Part shown: piece by piece, positions 1 through 58,400 of the stretch | How the letters are laid out: every line of letters begins with the position of its first letter | Numbering within the stretch: position 1 is the stretch's first letter | Assembly: GCA_002753095.1 (NCBI GenBank) | Contig: PDZU01000002.1 | Span: forward strand, 1 to 64,000 | Source: Magnetococcales bacterium | GTDB taxonomy: Bacteria > Pseudomonadota > Magnetococcia > Magnetococcales > Magnetaquicoccaceae | Length of the DNA: 64,000 nucleotides | Direction: 5' to 3' | Notes under the pieces: generated by a model | What the model was told of the DNA's origin: nothing | Databases searched by the model: none | The model's input: the letters and a program-made list of their open reading frames with translations, nothing else | Made by a program: the position numbers and the translations under genes

Positions 1-432
1 AGGGCAGAGCCCTGCTTGTAATGGCGCGCTTTTACCGAAGCAGATTTGGCGCAGCCAAATCTGCGCAGCGCGCCCAAATTTGTGCCCCGCAGGGGCACTC
101 CTTGGGAGGGCGGAGCCCGACTTTTAACGTTGAGGTATTGAGTTGCCTGCGGGCAAAACCCATTGGGAGGGTGTGCGGATTGGCGCAGAAAACCGCGCCA
201 ATCCGCACACCTTGCGTCAATTAGGCGCGCTGCGCCGACGCAAAAACCGCGTCGGCTTAGTGTGAAAAGCGCGCCAAAGGCAAAAGATAAAGGCAAAAGA
301 TAAAGGCAAAAGATAAAGGCAAAAGATAAAGGCAAAAGATAAAGGCAAAAGATAAAGGCAAAAGATAAGATCAACAGATAAATTCCCAGGGCTTCGCCCT
401 GGACCCACCAGGGGGGTGACCCCCCTGGACCC
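1..432 (+). repeat. Long-form mosaic hairpin element, copy A (truncated by window start)
   Basis: Series of palindromes shared with other copies: agatttggcgcagccaaatct, tgccccgcaggggca, gtgtgcggattggcgcagaaaaccgcgccaatccgcacac, ccagggcttcgccctgg, ccaggggggtgacccccctgg; ends ctggacccgcaattgttt. Confidence 0.9.
276..366 (+). repeat. 13-bp tandem repeat (aaaggcaaaagat) x7 inside hairpin element copy A
   Basis: Seven consecutive perfect 13-bp units read directly. Confidence 0.95.
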
Positions 433-447
433 GCAATTGTTTAAATC

Positions 448-2424: not shown

Positions 2425-2680
2425 TTTTGCCGTCGTGAGTCAATGGGTAACAGAACATCAGCACCCATGCAGCGAAAAACAATAAAAGTTGTCATGGCGC
2501 GCGATGTGAATAGTCGGGCGTCCGCCCTCCCAAAGCGTGCCCCTGCGGGGCACAGATTTGGGCGCGCTACGCAGATTTGGCTACGCCAAATCTGCTCCGG
2601 TGAAAGCGCGCCATTACATGCAAGGGCTCCGCCCTTGCAACCCGGCAGGGGCGGTGACCGCCCCTGCACCCCGCAATCCA
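2425..2680 (-). repeat. Short-form mosaic hairpin element, copy B
   Basis: gtcgggcgtccgccctccc, tgcccctgcggggca, agatttggctacgccaaatct, aagggctccgccctt, gcaggggcggtgaccgcccctgc. Confidence 0.85.
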
Positions 2681-17381: not shown

Positions 17382-17405
17382 GCTAACGAGACCTGAAACA
17401 ATGAT

Positions 17406-17790
17406 GGGTCCAGGGAGCTTAGCTCCCTGGCGGGTCCAGGGCAGAGCCCTGGGAATTTATCTTTTGATTTTAATCTTTTTGGCGCGCTTTTCACGATAAG
17501 CCGACGCGTTTTTTGCGTCGGCTTAAGCGCCTAATTGACGCAAGGTGTACGGATTGGCGCGCTTTTTTGCGCCAATCCGTACACCCTCCCAATGGGTTTT
17601 ACCCCTGCAGGTGATAGAGTACAACGCGGTTAAAGTCGGGCGTCCGCCCTCCCAAAGCGTGCCCCTGCGGGGCACAGATTGGTGCGGCGTGCGCGAATGC
17701 TGCGCATTCGCTTCTTAAAAACGCCGCACATTACAAGCAAGGGCTTTGCCCTTGCATCCCAGCCGGGGAGATGATCTCCCCGGCACCCCA
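17406..17790 (-). repeat. Long-form mosaic hairpin element, copy C
   Basis: gggtccagggagcttagctccctggcgggtccagggcagagccctgg ... ccggggagatgatctccccgg with all internal hairpins in reverse orientation to copy A. Confidence 0.9.
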
Positions 17791-17845
17791 CAATAAATTT
17801 TAACAGATTTATTGATGCAAAGGTGGATCGGATTGGATTAAATAC

Positions 17846-30167: not shown

Positions 30168-30578
30168 AGTCCAGGGGCGATCATCGCCCCTGGCGGGTGC
30201 AGGGCGGGGCCTCACAAGTGTTAACATGATCCAGGGCTTTGAAATCTTTAAAAATTTCTGCGGGGTCCAGGGGCGATCATCGCCCCTGGCGGGTGCAGGG
30301 CGGAGCCCTGCTGAAATGGCGCGCTTTTACCGAAGCAGATTTGCGCAGCAAATCTGCGCAGCGCGCCAAATCTGTGCCCCGCAGGGGCACGCTGCTGGAG
30401 GGCGGACGCCCGACCTTTAACATCGCGAGTCATAACGGCATTTTTTCTGTCGAATGGGTGTTCGTTGTTCGGTTAACGCGTCTGGGGCGGAGCCCTGCTT
30501 GTAATGGCGCGCTTTTACCGAAGCAGATTTGGCTGCGCCAAATCTGCGCAGCGCACCAAATCTGTGCCCCGCAGGGTA
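30168..30578 (+). repeat. Nested/tandem mosaic hairpin element copies D1-D3
   Basis: Two ccaggggcgatcatcgcccctgg arms about 100 bp apart, agatttgcgcagcaaatct and agatttggctgcgccaaatct hairpins, short-form tail ending gttaacg. Confidence 0.85.
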
Positions 30579-30830
30579 GCCGGTCAGACCAGAAACGGCC
30601 TCCACCAGCCCAACCCTCTTGACCAGGGTGCCATGGATGGGGATGATCGCGATGCCGTCTGGCGTGATGATTGGGGGGGCAGAACGGGTGGCAAGTGGCG
30701 TGTCCGCAGGCAGCACGGCATCAATACCGCTGCGTGGCCCGATCACCGCCAGGATGTTCTCCATTCGGGCCCGCTCAACCAGGAGGGGTGCACCCAGAAT
30801 CCGACCGGCAAGGTGTGGGAGAAAATGCAT
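30572..30830 (-). pseudogene. N-terminal fragment of phage S49-family (head maturation) protease
   Basis: MHFLPHLAGRILGAPLLVERARMENILAVIGPRSG...TPDGIAIIPIHGTLVKRVGLVEAVSGLTGY, then reads into the hairpin element. Confidence 0.7.
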
Positions 30831-30902
30831 GCACCGACTCCTGAAAAACAAAAACCTCGCTGTAGCGAGGTAGAGGAAAATGCCAACCTGGGCATTTCAT
30901 GG

Positions 30903-31211
30903 TTGTACAAGTCAACAGTTGTCGATACGATAAATAGCACGGAAATCACTTACGATCCGAATAAACGAGCAAAAACCCTCGAAGAACGAGGATTGGACTT
31001 CAAAGAATCCTCGGCTGTCTTTGCAGGGTATACCTACGAATTGGAGGATACACGTCATGACTACGGAGAACGCCGCATAATGTGTTTTGGCACATTGAAT
31101 GGGCGTATGGTAGTAGTCGGATATGTACAACGAGATAACGCTCGACACATTTTCTCTATGAGGAAAGCCAATGAACGGGAAATCGCCCGCTACAGCAGCA
31201 GGTTGGCCTAA
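30903..31211 (+). CDS. brnT: BrnT-like toxin (start codon uncertain, TTG assumed)
   Basis: EITYDPNKRAKTLEERGLDFKESSAVFAGYTYELEDTRHDYGERRIMCFGTLNGRMVVVGYVQRDNARHIFSMRKANEREIARY. Confidence 0.8.
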   Translation: MYKSTVVDTINSTEITYDPNKRAKTLEERGLDFKESSAVFAGYTYELEDTRHDYGERRIMCFGTLNGRMVVVGYVQRDNARHIFSMRKANEREIARYSSRLA

Positions 31212-31589: not shown

Positions 31590-31865
31590 TTAACTGTGAT
31601 GTATTGAGTCGCCTGCGGGAAAAACCCACTGGGAGGCTGCACGTGTTGGCGCAGAAAAGCGCGCCAGAAGCAACAGATTAAAATCATAAAGATAAATTCC
31701 CAGGACTCCGTCCTGGACCTGCCAGGAGGCTCGGCTCCCTGAACCCGCAATTGTTTTGGAGAAGTGAACAGTTTCCAAACGCGTAGCATGCGCGCATACC
31801 GCACCAATCCGTGCCCCCGCAGGGGCACGGATTGGGATGGCGGACGCCCGACCTTTAATCCCGCG
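31590..31865 (+). repeat. Degenerate mosaic hairpin element copy E
   Basis: attgagtcgcctgcgggaaaaacccactgggaggctgcacgtgttggcgcagaaaagcgcgcc...ccaggactccgtcctgg...tgcccccgcaggggca. Confidence 0.8.
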
Positions 31866-32912: not shown

Positions 32913-32960
32913 GCTGGGCACCGGGAACCATTACGGGTCCACGATGGTGCCCAATACGCG

Positions 32961-33066
32961 TTAACCGAACAACCGTTCGATAGCAAGAAAGCCGTTATGG
33001 CACGCGCTGTTAAAAGTCGGGCGTCCGCCCTCCCAAAGAGGGCCTCGCCCCTGGACCCCGCAAAAA
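32961..33066 (-). repeat. Short-form mosaic hairpin element copy F (truncated)
   Basis: gttaaccgaacaaccgttcgatagcaagaaagccgttatggcacgcgctgttaaaagtcgggcgtccgccctccc...gcccctggaccccgc. Confidence 0.75.
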
Positions 33067-39235: not shown

Positions 39236-39367
39236 CGATGGTCACCCCATTATCCAGTGATCGGTTCATCAGATCGCGCACACTCCTGCGATCCACCCCT
39301 GAGGATACACGCAGCCCCGTTACTATTCAACCGGGTTCACACAGGGCAATTGCATTTGCTAAAATGG

Positions 39368-39524
39368 GGTCAAGGGGAGATTATCTCCCCTTGCGGGTGC
39401 AGGGCGGAGCCCTGCTGAAATGGCGCGCTTTTAACGAAGCAGATTTGCGCAGCAAATCTGCGCAGCGCGCCCAAATTTGTGCCCCGCAGGGGCACGCTTC
39501 TGGAGGGCGGCAGCCCGACATGCA
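39368..39524 (+). repeat. Partial mosaic hairpin element copy G
   Basis: caaggggagattatctccccttg, cagggcggagccctg, agatttgcgcagcaaatct, tgccccgcaggggca. Confidence 0.85.
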
Positions 39525-39663
39525 CCGTGTTGTTGGAGTATGGCTGGCGAAAAAATCCAAAAGCAGCGACTCTGCATCCGGGTGGATTGATTGCCTGTAC
39601 CGGGGCGGCGCAGGAAAACCATTGAATGCGACCACGGCCTTTGCTAAACTCCTTCGAGTTTGT

Positions 39664-46842: not shown

Positions 46843-46872
46843 ATTGATATTGAGAGATTTATAAATTTCTGC

Positions 46873-47094
46873 GGGGTCCAGGGGCGATCATCGCCCCTGG
46901 CGGGTGCAGGGTGGAGCCATGCTTGTCATGTGCGGCGTTTTACGAAAGCAAATGCGCAGCATTTGCGCACGCCGCACAGATTTGTGCCCCGCAGGGGCAC
47001 GCTCCTGGAGGGCGGATGCCCGACTTTTAACATCGCGTGTTATAATGGCTTTTTTGCTGTCGAATGGGTGTTTGTTGTTCTGTCAACGTGTGTG
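46873..47094 (+). repeat. Short-form mosaic hairpin element copy H
   Basis: ggggtccaggggcgatcatcgcccctgg, aaatgcgcagcatttgcg, tgccccgcaggggca, tail aacatcgcgtgttataatggc...atgggtgtttgttgttctgtcaacg. Confidence 0.85.
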
Positions 47095-47108
47095 GGGGAT
47101 TGCGTGCG

Positions 47109-48018: not shown

Positions 48019-48520
48019 GCTGCGGGGTCCAGGGGTGATCATCGCCCCTGGCGGGTGCAGGGCTTAAGCCATGTAAGCGTTAATATTCTATAAATGTTTG
48101 AAATCTTTAAAAATTTATGCGGGGTCCAGGGGCGATCATCGCCCCTGGCGGGTGCAGGGCAGCGCCCTGCTTGTAATGGCGCGCTTTTACCGAAGCAGAT
48201 TTGGCAAAGCCAAATCTGCGCAGCGCGCCAAATCTGTGCCCCGCAGGGGCACTCTTTGGGAGGGCGGACGCCCGACTTTTAACCTCGCGGTACTGAGTCA
48301 CCTACGGGTGGCAAAACCCATTGGGAGGGTGTGGGCATTGGCGCAGAAAAGCGCGCCAATGCCCACACCTTGCGTCAATTAGGCGCGCTGCGCCGATGCA
48401 AAAAGCGCATCGGCTTGTCGTGAAAAGCGCGCCAAAGGCAAAAGATAAAGGCAAAAGATTAAAAGCAAAATTCCCAGGGCGCTGCCCTGGACCCGCCAGG
48501 GGGGTGTCCCCCCTGGACCC
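48019..48520 (+). repeat. Long-form mosaic hairpin element copy I (48122-48520) preceded by a solo terminal arm (48019-48065)
   Basis: Complete element bounded by gggtccaggggcgatcatcgcccctgg and ccaggggggtgtcccccctggaccc; includes gtgtgggcattggcgcagaaaagcgcgccaatgcccacac. Confidence 0.92.
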
Positions 48521-48543
48521 ACAATTGTTTTTATGTCTCTCAT

Positions 48544-52741: not shown

Positions 52742-52767
52742 TAGGATTCAGGAACAAAAATAATTAC

Positions 52768-53174
52768 GGGTCCAGGGAGCTTAGCTTCCTGGCGGGTCCA
52801 GGGCAGAGCCCTGGGAATTTATCTTTTGATTTTGTCTTTTGATTTTGTGATCTTGTCTTTTGATTTTGGCGCGCTTTTCACGATAAGCCGACGCGGTTTT
52901 TGCGTTGGCTTAAGCGCCTAATTGACGCAAGCTGTGCATATTGGCGCGGTTTTCTGCGCCAATATGCACAGCCTCCCAATGGGTTTTTCCCGTAGGTAAC
53001 TCAATACATCGAGGTTAAAAGTCGGGCTCCGCCCTCCCAAAGAGTGCCCCTGCGGGGCACAAATTTGGGCGCGCTGCGCAGATTTGCTGCGCAAATCTGC
53101 TTCGGTAAAAGCGCGCCATTGCAAGCATGGCTCCGCCCTGCACCCGCCAGGGGAGATAATCTCCCCTGGACCCC
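52768..53174 (-). repeat. Long-form mosaic hairpin element copy J
   Basis: gggtccagggagcttagcttcctggcgggtccagggcagagccctgg...caggggagataatctcccctggacccc; complete element, reverse orientation. Confidence 0.92.
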
Positions 53175-53213
53175 ATGATAATGATAATGATAATGATAAA
53201 TCCAAATCCAAAT

Positions 53214-54437: not shown

Positions 54438-55460
54438 TCAAAGAGAAGAGTGTTTACGTAACTCCGCGCCCAAAGCCTGCTCCATAAGCTGGATGGAGTG
54501 GCGCAATTGCTGCAGAAGTTCATGGGCCTGACCCAAATCCCGATTGCGACCCGCCTGCTCGAGTTGATAGGCCAAAGCAAAACTCAGAGTGCTCTTGCCA
54601 AATGCCCCAGAAGCCCCCTTGAGCGAATGAGCCGCCTCGCGGACCAAATCAGGATCCTGGCGCTGGATGCCATCCTGAATGCGCTGCAGTTGTTTTGGCG
54701 CATCCGTCCGATATAAATCAACAATTTCACCCAATAAACCCCAATCGTCCTCAACGGTCTTCAGCAAGGACTCCATGTTGAGACCAATGTCCAGCGCACA
54801 CTCCGTATCATCCAGAGCACGCTCAACCTCCGACACGGCAGGCGCAGGCAACAACTGCTCTATCTCGGCAAAAAGCTGATTGGCCTGCACCGGCTTGCAG
54901 TGAAATCCATCCATCCCTACCTGCTTGGCCCGCTGCCGATCCGCCTCATCGTTGAGCACCGTCACCGCAATAATGGGTACCCTGGGCCGCGCAGACTCTG
55001 CCTCCCATTGCCGGATGGCGTGCGTCGCCTCAAAACCATCCATGCCTGGCATGCGAATGTCCATCAAAACCATGTTGAAAGGCTCGCCCCGCACAGTCGC
55101 CTCCTGCAGCAGCTTGAGCGCCTCCTCACCCTGACCAGCAACCGCAATATGCTGGGCACGCATCGTCAGCAAACGTGACATCAACTTCTGCGTAAAAGGG
55201 TTATCCTCCACCAACAACAGACGTAAAGGACTCCCCTGCCCAGTCGCCCTCGGCGTAAACTCTGCCTGCCGCACGCTCTGCTCCACCCCAGCAGGTGTCA
55301 ATAAGGACAACAATGTATCACTGGCCATCTGCAGATGCTGCAAATGCGTTTGCATGACAGTGGACGGAGTGAGCGCATGCATCTGCCGCAGTTGCGCCTG
55401 AATAAACGCAACCCAGTGCAGCGGATCCTGTTGTTGGTGAGACGGCCAATCTTCCTGCAC
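54438..55460 (-). CDS. Response regulator with C-terminal Hpt domain
   Basis: Receiver LLLVEDNPFTQKLMSRLL...[19 protein letters not shown]; Hpt motif AAHSLKGASGAFG. Confidence 0.9.
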   Translation of the reverse strand: MQEDWPSHQQQDPLHWVAFIQAQLRQMHALTPSTVMQTHLQHLQMASDTLLSLLTPAGVEQSVRQAEFTPRATGQGSPLRLLLVEDNPFTQKLMSRLLTMRAQHIAVAGQGEEALKLLQEATVRGEPFNMVLMDIRMPGMDGFEATHAIRQWEAESARPRVPIIAVTVLNDEADRQRAKQVGMDGFHCKPVQANQLFAEIEQLLPAPAVSEVERALDDTECALDIGLNMESLLKTVEDDWGLLGEIVDLYRTDAPKQLQRIQDGIQRQDPDLVREAAHSLKGASGAFGKSTLSFALAYQLEQAGRNRDLGQAHELLQQLRHSIQLMEQALGAELRKHSSL

Positions 55461-55472
55461 GACGACTCCTGG

Positions 55473-58400
55473 TTAGCCATTCAAGGGGGAGTGGGAATCA
55501 TAATTTTGTACATACTGCTCCACTTGCCGCAGGATATGTTCCAGTTGGTCCATGAGCAAGAGCGCTTGATCCCAGTCGCCTTTGGCGACTGTTTTTTCCA
55601 AAGTGTTGGCGGCAGAAGACATGCTGATCGCCCCCATGTTGGCACACGCTTCCTGGAGTTCAAAGGCCGTATCATGCAATGACTCACCATTCTGGTCGCG
55701 AATGCACTGCCACAAACGGTCCAACAACTCCCGCACAGAGGCTGGAAATTGCTGGAGCAATTCTCGCACCATGCCGTCATCTTCCCCAAAAAGCTGCCGC
55801 AATTGCTGAATCTCAATGGCAGGCTGATTGTGGGTTCCTCTGGGCATCCAATACTGCAGTTTCTTGAGCAGAATATCCGGTGCCACCGGTTTGCTGAGAT
55901 AATCATCCATGCCAGCCTGCAAACAACGCTCCCGATCCCCCTTCATGGCGTTGGCCGTCATGGCCACGATGGGCGTATGCCGAAAAGAAGCCTGCTCCAT
56001 CTTGCGAATGGCATGGGTCGCCTCAAAACCATCCATGACCGGCATCTGACAATCCATCAGCACCAGGGCATAAGGCAAATTGGCAACCGCCTCTACAGCC
56101 TCGCGCCCATTGCTGACAGCATGCGCAGCATAACCAAGTTTCTTTAGTTGCAACAGCGTTACCTTCTGATTGACCGGATTATCCTCCACCAACAACACCA
56201 GACGACCAGACTCCAACGCATCAAAAGCATCCATGGCCGGATGGCCGGGCAGATCGTGGGACCAGGGCGGCGGAGTGGGCGCTACCTCCCCACTGTTGAC
56301 CGGTGTGAGCAGACGCAAAAGACAGTGCAGCCACTCCTCCTGACGCACCGGTTTGACCAAACAGGTGCGCATGCCAATCGCCGCCGCTAACTCCCGCAAC
56401 GCCTTGTCATCCTGATCCAACAAGGCAATCCAATGCAGCAAAGAGCCACCAGGAATGGGACGCTGCAGCAAATGAGGATCATGCAATGCCTGTCCAGGCA
56501 GGTGCAAAATCACAGCAGAATTGCTGGGTAAATCCTGGGTCAGTTGCTGCCAGGACCGCTCCGGCAGATTACCGCTGTACAGAACAGAATGATGAATCAA
56601 ACCCCAAGCCCGTAGATAACAATCCAAAATTTCTTGATCTGTCCTGCTGCCAAGTAGCGTCAAAACATGTATCCCAGGCAAAATGGTGCGCCCATTGCCC
56701 TCCTCACCGACGGCCATGGGATAGGCCAGACGCAAAGGCAAAATAAACCAGAAAGTGCTCCCCTGATTCACCTCTACCTCAGTGCCAATGGATCCTCCCA
56801 TGAGCTCCGCCAAACGCTTGGTAATGGCCAGCCCTAGCCCAGTCCCCCCATATTTACGGCTGGTGGTGCGGTCTCCCTGGGTGAAAGGCTCAAACAGACG
56901 TTCCTTGATCTCCTCCGGTAGGCCAATCCCCGTGTCGCTGACCGAAAAACGCAGCAAAACACGATCCTTGCCAAGAGAGTGACCTGCCTCGTTCTCCTGG
57001 CGCTGCACGCGGACAATAATTTCGCCCTCTTCAGTAAACTTGATGGCATTGTTCATCAAATTGAGCACCATCTGCCGCAAGCGCCCCGGATCACCGCGCA
57101 AAATCTTTGGAATTTCCGGGTCAATGAACGTCATCAATGCCAAGCCCTTGTCGTGGGCCTGGGCCGCCAGCAGTTCAGCACACCCCTCAACGACGGTGAT
57201 GGGAGAAAACTCAATCTCCTCGATGTCCATGCGACCGGCTTCGATTTTTGAAAAATCAAGAATATCATTGATTAAGGAGAGTAGAGACTTGGCCGAATCA
57301 CGGACAATGTCGCAAAACTCCTCCTGCTCCTCATTCATGGGGGTGTCCATGAGCAGGTCGTTCATGCCAATGATGGCATTCATGGGCGTGCGGATTTCGT
57401 GGCTCATGTTGGCCAGGAACTCGGACTTTAAGCGGGCCGACTCTCTGGCCACATCCCGTTCCTGTTCCAACTCCTGGATCCGCTTGCGCACGCGGGCGTT
57501 ATCGTGAAAGAGAGAGACAGAACCAATCATCTCCTCTTCGTCGCGCAGGGGGGCCGTGATGTGGGCCACAGGCAGCAAAGAACCATCCTTGCGGATGAAA
57601 TGGTCCTGCTCCACCCGAAAAATTCGGCCCAACAAGCTTTGGTGTACCATGCACTCCTCGGACGGGAAGGGTGTGCCGTCGAGTCGCTTAAAATGGATGG
57701 CCTCATGGACGTTTTTATGAATCAATTCCGCTTCGCGCCAACCAAGCAGACGTTCCCCCTCCTGGTTGAGGCTGAGCAGTTGCCCCTGCAGATCCATGAC
57801 CATGACCCCCTCGCCAATGGCATTGATGACCCGGTGCAAGAAATTACGATTGCGTTCCAGTCGCGTGCGGGTACGGACCATCTGCGAGATGTCGGTGGCT
57901 ACCCAGATATACTGAAAAGGGTGTCCCAAAGGGGTGAGACAGGGGACAATGGAACAATCTACCCAAAAAAATTCACCATTTTTCTTGCGGTTGCGGATTT
58001 CGCCACGCCAGACAGAACCGTTGAGAATGGTACGCCACAGCTCCTTGAAAAAAGATTTTGGATGGTACCCGGAGTTGAAAAGACGATGATTTTGGCCAAC
58101 TACTTCGGAGAGGTCATACCGGCACACCTCCAAAAACTTGTCGTTGACGGCGAGGATGCTCCCCTCTGGATCAACAACGCTGATCAGAACATGTTGATCG
58201 GTGGCATCCTTGAGCTGTTCGAGCAAAGAAAGAGAGTGGCGATACATCTGCGTCTGCTCTTCAAGCAGCGTGCCCAGACGATCCCGCTCGGAAACATCGC
58301 GGAAAATACCCTCAATGGCAATGGGCAGACCATTGCTGTCCAGAACCAGCTTGGCGGTCATGGAGACAGGCAAATGGCGACTCTGCTTGCATTGCAGTGG

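What the first reader, a model, noticed from the sequence alone, without database searches (positions are those of the whole stretch)
48122..48520. Uncharacterised about 400-bp modular hairpin element present at about ten intergenic loci
The same ordered series of palindromes recurs at 1-432, 2425-2680, 17406-17790, 30168-30578, 31590-31865, 32961-33066, 39368-39524, 46873-47094, 48019-48520 and 52768-53174. Complete copies are bounded by GGGTCCAGG...CCTGG arms at both ends (terminal inverted repeats that are themselves hairpins) and contain at least seven further hairpins. No transposase or RAYT-like gene is visible in the window. The density in 64 kb suggests a genome-wide family. It could be a MITE/BIME-like mobile element, a structured-RNA source, or a nucleoid or transcription-insulation element.
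Basis: partly seen in the sequence, partly recalled or inferred. Interest (0 to 1): 0.92.

Follow-up and report, generated by a model that had tools for sequence, protein, structure and literature searches.

The report
Palindrome-packed mobile repeat of magnetotactic cocci
About 400 copies of a hairpin-filled DNA element sit between genes of this magnetotactic-coccus genome; relatives show that it spread as a small passenger of known transposons, and its hairpin arms keep changing sequence while staying perfectly self-complementary.

Summary
The repeat is real: all ten window loci are confirmed, and sampling gives about 400 loci (2.8% of DNA) in this Magnetococcales genome. Only four window copies (A, C, I, J) carry both half-modules; the rest are left-half copies with other tails or fragments. 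The full element is two related half-units in inverted orientation, about 410 bp.

In relatives the same palindromes lie inside true MITEs of two unrelated kinds. One has IS66/ISBst12-type ends (GTAACTATTCAG) and 8-bp target duplications; an IS66 transposon with those ends is in this genome. The other has ISAs1-type ends (CAGGGCAAKCGCATTTG) and 10-bp duplications. Most 410-bp copies in the window genome have neither end nor duplication, so their own mobiliser is unresolved. RAYT and Rpn partners were tested and not supported.

Hairpin arms co-vary strongly (156 two-sided against 3 one-sided changes in the right module) with almost no G-U, which points to DNA-level upkeep of the palindromes rather than RNA selection. 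Copies crowd convergent gene ends (47% against 14%) and avoid divergent promoters.

No description was found in the literature searched: a new variant of a known kind.

The parts
48116..48286 (+). Copy I, left half-module L: H1 48126-48148, H2 48154-48170, H3 48178-48229 (outer GGCGCGC/GCGCGCC, inner GCAGATTTGGC/GCCAAATCTGC), H4 48236-48252, H5 48262-48273
48277..48309 (+). Copy I, linker between half-modules (mean identity 0.72 among copies)
48310..48530 (+). Copy I, right half-module R: 17-bp stem H6 48328-48369, H7 48382-48433 with inner stem 48392-48414, A-rich tract, H8 48474-48490, H9 48496-48516; the reverse complement of R is a diverged L
48434..48470 (+). Variable AAAGGCAAAAGAT-type tract in copy I
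48020..48076 (+). Extra end-hairpin unit directly upstream of copy I
48104..48120 (+). Left tip of copy I (AT-rich, semi-conserved for about 12 nt outside the hairpin)
48521..48532 (+). Right tip of copy I (ACAATTGTTTTT)
1..442 (+). Copy A, L+R, 5' end cut by the contig start; 13-bp tandem array at 276-368
2503..2677 (-). Copy B, left half only with a different tail
17396..17794 (-). Copy C, complete L+R; no element between the orthologous genes in WMHbinv6 (G004, about 70 bp there) or G001
30169..30576 (+). Copy D, end hairpin + L + tail X + partial second L
31619..31861 (+). Copy E, R fragments followed by an L fragment
32950..33044 (-). Copy F, tail X with a remnant of L
39342..39568 (+). 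Copy G, left half-module (39362-39525) with a decayed ISAs1-type left end (CAGGGCAATTGCATTTG)
46868..47097 (+). Copy H, L + tail X; the tail reaches the start of the next gene
52758..53179 (-). Copy J, complete L+R between convergent genes

Best explanation
The element is a family of miniature, non-autonomous, palindrome-rich mobile elements (MITE type) of the order Magnetococcales. Shown: the same palindromic modules are carried in relatives inside MITEs with IS66/ISBst12-type ends and 8-bp target duplications, and inside MITEs with CAGGGC-type ends and 10-bp duplications; IS66 transposons with the first kind of end exist in the window genome and in a relative. Inferred: these transposases move them in trans (action at the ends, insertion with target duplication); the second mobiliser is ISAs1. 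In the window genome most 410-bp copies lack those outer ends and look immobile, or were amplified by an unidentified route. Shown: hairpin arms diverge between copies yet stay Watson-Crick complementary almost without G-U steps. Inferred: template switching between arms at replication (quasipalindrome correction), perhaps with selection for the hairpin in DNA, keeps them palindromic. Shown: surviving copies sit just behind stop codons and between convergent genes. Inferred: insertions in promoters and operons are purged and those at gene ends tolerated, with possible use as transcription barriers.
For: IS66-type ends with exact 8-bp duplications in G004, UR-1 and G025 and in 13 of 21 end pairs examined in G021 and G028, mispaired control 0 of 1000. 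An IS66 element with the same ends and an exact duplication in G007 (L192), and one with the same ends and a 492-aa transposase in the window genome (L202; its outer flank is cut by the contig end). A published ISBst12-group IS, ISDge4, has ends GTAACTGCTCAGCA and an 8-bp repeat (PMC12898284). CAGGGC-type ends with exact 10-bp duplications in UR-1; a published ISAs1 IS with CAGGGC ends and a 10-bp repeat (PMC6305408); an ISAs1 relic in G027 with CAGGGAAATCGCATTTG upstream. One own copy keeps the full IS66-type ends (L074:131-439). Two-sided pair changes. Position bias.
Against: In the window genome the 410-bp copies show no target duplication, no excess of IS66-type ends, and conservation falls to random about 12-18 nt outside the hairpins while the internal linker stays at 0.72; so they were apparently amplified without those ends. 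The ISAs1 assignment rests on end sequence, duplication length and one relic, not on an intact transposon with these ends. The searches saw one draft genome per species.
Confidence: 0.72

Rival explanations
1. A REP/REPIN-like family moved by a Y1 (RAYT) transposase acting on the end hairpins; this would explain hairpin ends and the lack of target duplications in the window genome.
For: Own 410-bp copies end in hairpins and have no target duplication; three RAYT-like genes are in the genome; inverted pairs of end hairpins exist as minimal forms (L047:5785-5878; G003).
Against: RAYT genes here are not flanked by the arms: of two loci read, one has a single copy about 800 bp away and a different palindrome (GGGGACA..TGTCCC), the other none. 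Genomes with many element candidates lack any Y1_Tnp match (G018, G040, G006, G036). Younger copies in relatives have ends and duplications typical of DDE transposons.
Confidence: 0.1
2. A host-selected regulatory element: bidirectional terminator, mRNA 3'-end stabiliser or nucleoid/supercoiling barrier at convergent gene ends, kept because it is useful.
For: 33 of 70 scored copies lie between convergent genes against 89 of 626 gene pairs, only 2 between divergent genes; median 31 bp from the left gene; same trend in G001, G004 and UR-1. Core hairpin H4 is 0.98 identical among copies.
Against: The scan found no terminator signature in the copy I region beyond chance (2 found, 1.2 expected). 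The sites checked in relatives are empty, so positions turn over. Purging of harmful insertions gives the same bias.
Confidence: 0.25
3. A dispersed structured non-coding RNA gene family.
For: Very stable predicted fold and strong pair covariation.
Against: G-U pairs are nearly absent in the right module (4 against 1696 Watson-Crick, and A-C mismatches outnumber G-U), unlike RNA-selected stems; no Rfam family; no promoter-like site in the region scanned.
Confidence: 0.05
4. An Rpn (YhgA-like, Transposase_31) nuclease element: L-rpn-R would be the autonomous form.
For: L041:560-2136 is a 1577-bp element with L, an rpn gene and R, and a 12-nt direct repeat CCGACTTTTAAC at the two junctions.
Against: None of the 30 other Rpn hit loci examined (four of them own) has modules on both sides; reads as one insertion of rpn into a linker.
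Confidence: 0.03

Closest known systems
Bacterial MITEs (Correia/NEMIS, BrickBuilt, ERIC type)
   Same: Short, non-coding, intergenic, high copy, terminal inverted repeats and target duplications in the relatives' copies, strong foldback
   Different: Two unrelated kinds of transposon end around the same palindromic modules; inverted dimer of half-units with many independent hairpins; most copies of the window genome have neither ends nor duplications
IS66 family, ISBst12 group (e.g. ISDge4, PMC12898284)
   Same: End sequence GTAACTATTCAGCA-like, 8-bp duplication, single-ORF transposase present in own genome
   Different: The repeat has no transposase gene; only the tips are shared; most own copies lack the tips
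ISAs1 family (e.g. ISArsp11, PMC6305408)
   Same: CAGGGC ends and 10-bp duplication in the left-half elements of UR-1
   Different: No intact ISAs1 transposon with exactly these ends was found in the genomes searched
REP / BIME / REPIN systems
   Same: Inverted pairs of palindromic units, extragenic, gene 3' ends and convergent junctions
   Different: Units of about 160-220 nt rather than 20-40 bp; no RAYT linkage; DDE-type duplications in young copies
Rhizobium RIME and A-B-C mosaic elements (from own knowledge, not read here)
   Same: Mosaic intergenic palindromes with interchangeable modules
   Different: Sequence relationship not tested; different order

Membership tests
MITE | Short non-coding element present in many copies | tested here: met
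   About 400 loci estimated, 2.8% of sampled DNA
MITE | Terminal inverted repeats | tested here: met
   In relatives: GTAACTATTCAG and CAGGGCAAKCGCATTTG. In own 410-bp copies only about 12 nt of imperfect AT-rich tips
MITE | Target site duplication | tested here: inconclusive
   Met in relatives; not met in 35 own full copies; one own copy has 6 of 8
MITE | Shares ends with an autonomous transposon | tested here: met
   IS66 elements L192 and L202; applies to the end-bearing copies only
IS66/ISBst12-derived | GTAA-starting ends and 8-bp duplication | tested here: met
   for relatives; not met for most own copies
IS66/ISBst12-derived | Moved in trans by an IS66 transposase | not testable with these tools
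   Needs a transposition assay
ISAs1-derived | CAGGG ends and 8-10 bp duplication | tested here: met
   for UR-1; published example read
ISAs1-derived | Intact ISAs1 transposon with the same ends in the genome | tested here: not met
   Only a relic in G027 with one matching end; own ISAs1 fragment lacks it
REP/REPIN-RAYT | RAYT gene flanked by the same palindromes | tested here: not met
REP/REPIN-RAYT | Element and RAYT occur together across genomes | tested here: not met
   (draft genomes, so absence is not certain)
Structured RNA family | Match to a known family | tested here: not met
Structured RNA family | Stem covariation including G-U intermediates | tested here: not met
   Covariation strong, G-U nearly absent in the right module
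Structured RNA family | Discrete transcript | not testable with these tools
   No RNA-seq available

The most novel reading that the evidence does not exclude
The palindromic half-unit is a transposon-independent passenger: it recruits ends from unrelated transposon families (IS66, ISAs1, and in the window genome a third, tip-poor form), and its arms evolve in concert at DNA level by template switching, so that it remains a perfect palindrome while its sequence drifts.
Probability: 0.3. Interest if true: 0.75.

Novelty: new variant of a known kind. Interest (0 to 1): 0.58.

Why it matters
It ties an undescribed, order-wide repeat of magnetotactic cocci to two nameable transposon types, supplies about 400 natural replicates per genome of palindromes that change sequence without losing pairing (a direct test bed for template switching against RNA selection), and helps explain fragmented assemblies of these genomes, since the window contig itself begins inside a copy.

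Tried and rejected
Rfam search: only a tRNA. Fixed-offset target-duplication scan in 35 own full copies: none. Search for IS66-type ends near own copies: no excess. RAYT partnership: not supported. Rpn partnership: one case only. ISAs1 transposon with intact matching ends: not found. Longer elements with the tips of the 410-bp form in the 842-kb sample: only L041 with rpn. Phage and plasmid collections: none and trivial matches. Hits in Arenimonas fontis: three contigs of 267-688 bp made of element sequence, up to 97% identical to UR-1 copies, judged contamination. Literature: no description of the repeat in the searches made; the held text of the UR-1 genome paper contains neither 'repeat' nor 'transposase'.

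Full report
Identity of the genome. The window is the first 64 kb of a 134-kb contig of a 3.58-Mb, 177-contig draft genome.

The observation. The three largest contigs sampled hold 41 clusters in 371 kb, or about 400 per genome; clusters cover 2.8% of the whole sample. The second sampling batch was chosen from contigs with known hits, so the three-contig figure is the safer one. Architectures: 35 L alone, 35 L+R (23 plain, 7 with R split in two, 5 with an extra end unit), 6 L+X, and rarer forms.

Anatomy. L is about 170 nt with five hairpins; R is about 220 nt with a 17-bp stem, a second compound stem, a variable A-rich tract and two end hairpins. The reverse complement of R matches L, so the 410-bp form is two diverged half-units in inverted orientation. 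In G001 both halves are L-like, facing each other. As a single strand, copy I folds far better than shuffles (z about -14). End hairpins are exchangeable: some copies carry the left-type hairpin at the right end and the reverse.

Mobile ends in relatives. In UR-1, WMHbinv6 and G025 the elements end in GTAACTATTCAG and its reverse complement, with exact 8-bp duplications at several loci. In G021, of another family of the order, 147-bp elements with the same ends, nearly all of those fetched containing the GGGTCCAGGG end hairpin, show exact 8-bp duplications: 13 of the 21 end pairs examined (20 in G021, one in G028), against 0 of 1000 mispaired flanks. The end motif (up to one mismatch) occurs 135 times in UR-1 and 293 times in G021, with zero in the reversed-pattern control. 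IS66-family elements with the same ends occur in G007 (with an exact duplication) and in the window genome itself, the latter with a 492-aa single-ORF transposase at a contig start. A published ISBst12-group element has near-identical ends and an 8-bp repeat (PMC12898284). A second kind of end, CAGGGCAAKCGCATTTG with 10-bp duplications (four exact, others 8-9 of 10), encloses the left-half elements of UR-1 and survives in decayed form in some left-half copies of the window genome, window copy G among them. It matches ISAs1 in end sequence and duplication length (PMC6305408), and an ISAs1 relic in G027 starts with CAGGGAAATCGCATTTG.

What does not fit. The 410-bp copies of the window genome show no target duplication and no excess of IS66-type ends. 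Among 32 of them, identity is 0.55-0.59 for about 12 nt outside the end hairpins and then falls to the random level, while the linker inside stays at 0.72. Loss of ends by simple ageing does not explain this, so I leave their mode of spread open. Only L074:131-439 keeps complete IS66-type ends. RAYT genes are neither flanked by the arms nor present in all element-bearing genomes. One copy, L041:560-2136, contains an rpn gene between L and R, but none of 30 other Rpn hit loci does.

Arms that change together. On 37 R modules, 98.4% of cells pair, 21 of 47 pairs show two-sided changes, 156 cells are changed on both sides and only 3 on one side; 0 of 500 shuffles reach this for paired cells or two-sided changes, and sliding the partners destroys it. 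L modules behave alike, 199 two-sided cells, with somewhat more G-U and alignment noise in H2 and H3. In the own genome 34 long stems have 25 distinct 5' arms and 26 of the 34 are perfect palindromes. G-U is nearly absent in R, 4 cells against 1696 Watson-Crick and 28 other mismatches. RNA-level selection would pass through and tolerate G-U; single-step copying of one arm onto the other would not. The tRNA yardstick, 7% G-U, rests on three tRNAs only. Template switching as a creator and keeper of hairpins has been published (PMC8794818, abstract seen). Shuffles do not remove relatedness among copies, so counts are of sequences, not events.

Position. With a simple gene caller, 33 of 70 scored own elements lie between convergent genes and 2 between divergent ones, while all adjacent gene pairs are 14% convergent and 15% divergent; 25 of 35 co-directional cases have the element on the genes' strand; median distance to the left gene is 31 bp. 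G001, G004 and UR-1 show the same trend (7 of 12, 6 of 9, 8 of 26 convergent). Two sites are empty in WMHbinv6 (copy C, with about 70 bp between the orthologous genes, and C114:26169); flanks were too diverged to read a duplication there. The bias fits purging of harmful insertions and does not by itself show a function.

Verdict. A palindrome-rich MITE family of Magnetococcales, new as a family in the searches made, related by its ends to IS66/ISBst12 and ISAs1 transposons in relatives, with an unresolved tip-poor majority in the window genome. Novelty lies in the shared modules across two transposon kinds and in the concerted, nearly G-U-free evolution of the arms.

Noticed in passing
window 276-368: Seven perfect copies of a 13-bp unit AAAGGCAAAAGAT in copy A; the same tract varies in length among copies genome-wide, a likely length-variable locus.
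   Followed up: partly
L041:560-2136 (G000:C128:84560-86136): An rpn-like (Transposase_31 + DUF4351) gene sits between L and R of one element, with a 12-nt direct repeat CCGACTTTTAAC at both junctions.
   Followed up: yes
L165, L168, L172: Three tiny contigs in the Arenimonas fontis 3729k assembly consist of element sequence up to 97% identical to UR-1 copies; likely cross-contamination of a public record.
   Followed up: yes
G027 (4.7 Mb, one contig): 34 IS66 matches in a Magnetococcales genome that shows no match to the 410-bp element in the first search; the one whose ends were read is of the GTAAGCG type.
   Followed up: partly
window 30504-31211: An ORF overlapping copy D has a C-terminal BrnT-type toxin domain; the part over the element may be a spurious extension.
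   Followed up: no
window 55012-55083 and 56005-56076: Imperfect direct repeat (76%) in a histidine-kinase/response-regulator region, probably paralogous receiver domains.
   Followed up: no
L131:520-575: A different palindrome (GGGGACACCATACG..CGTATGGTGTCCC type) lies near a RAYT-like gene and may be its true REP.
   Followed up: no
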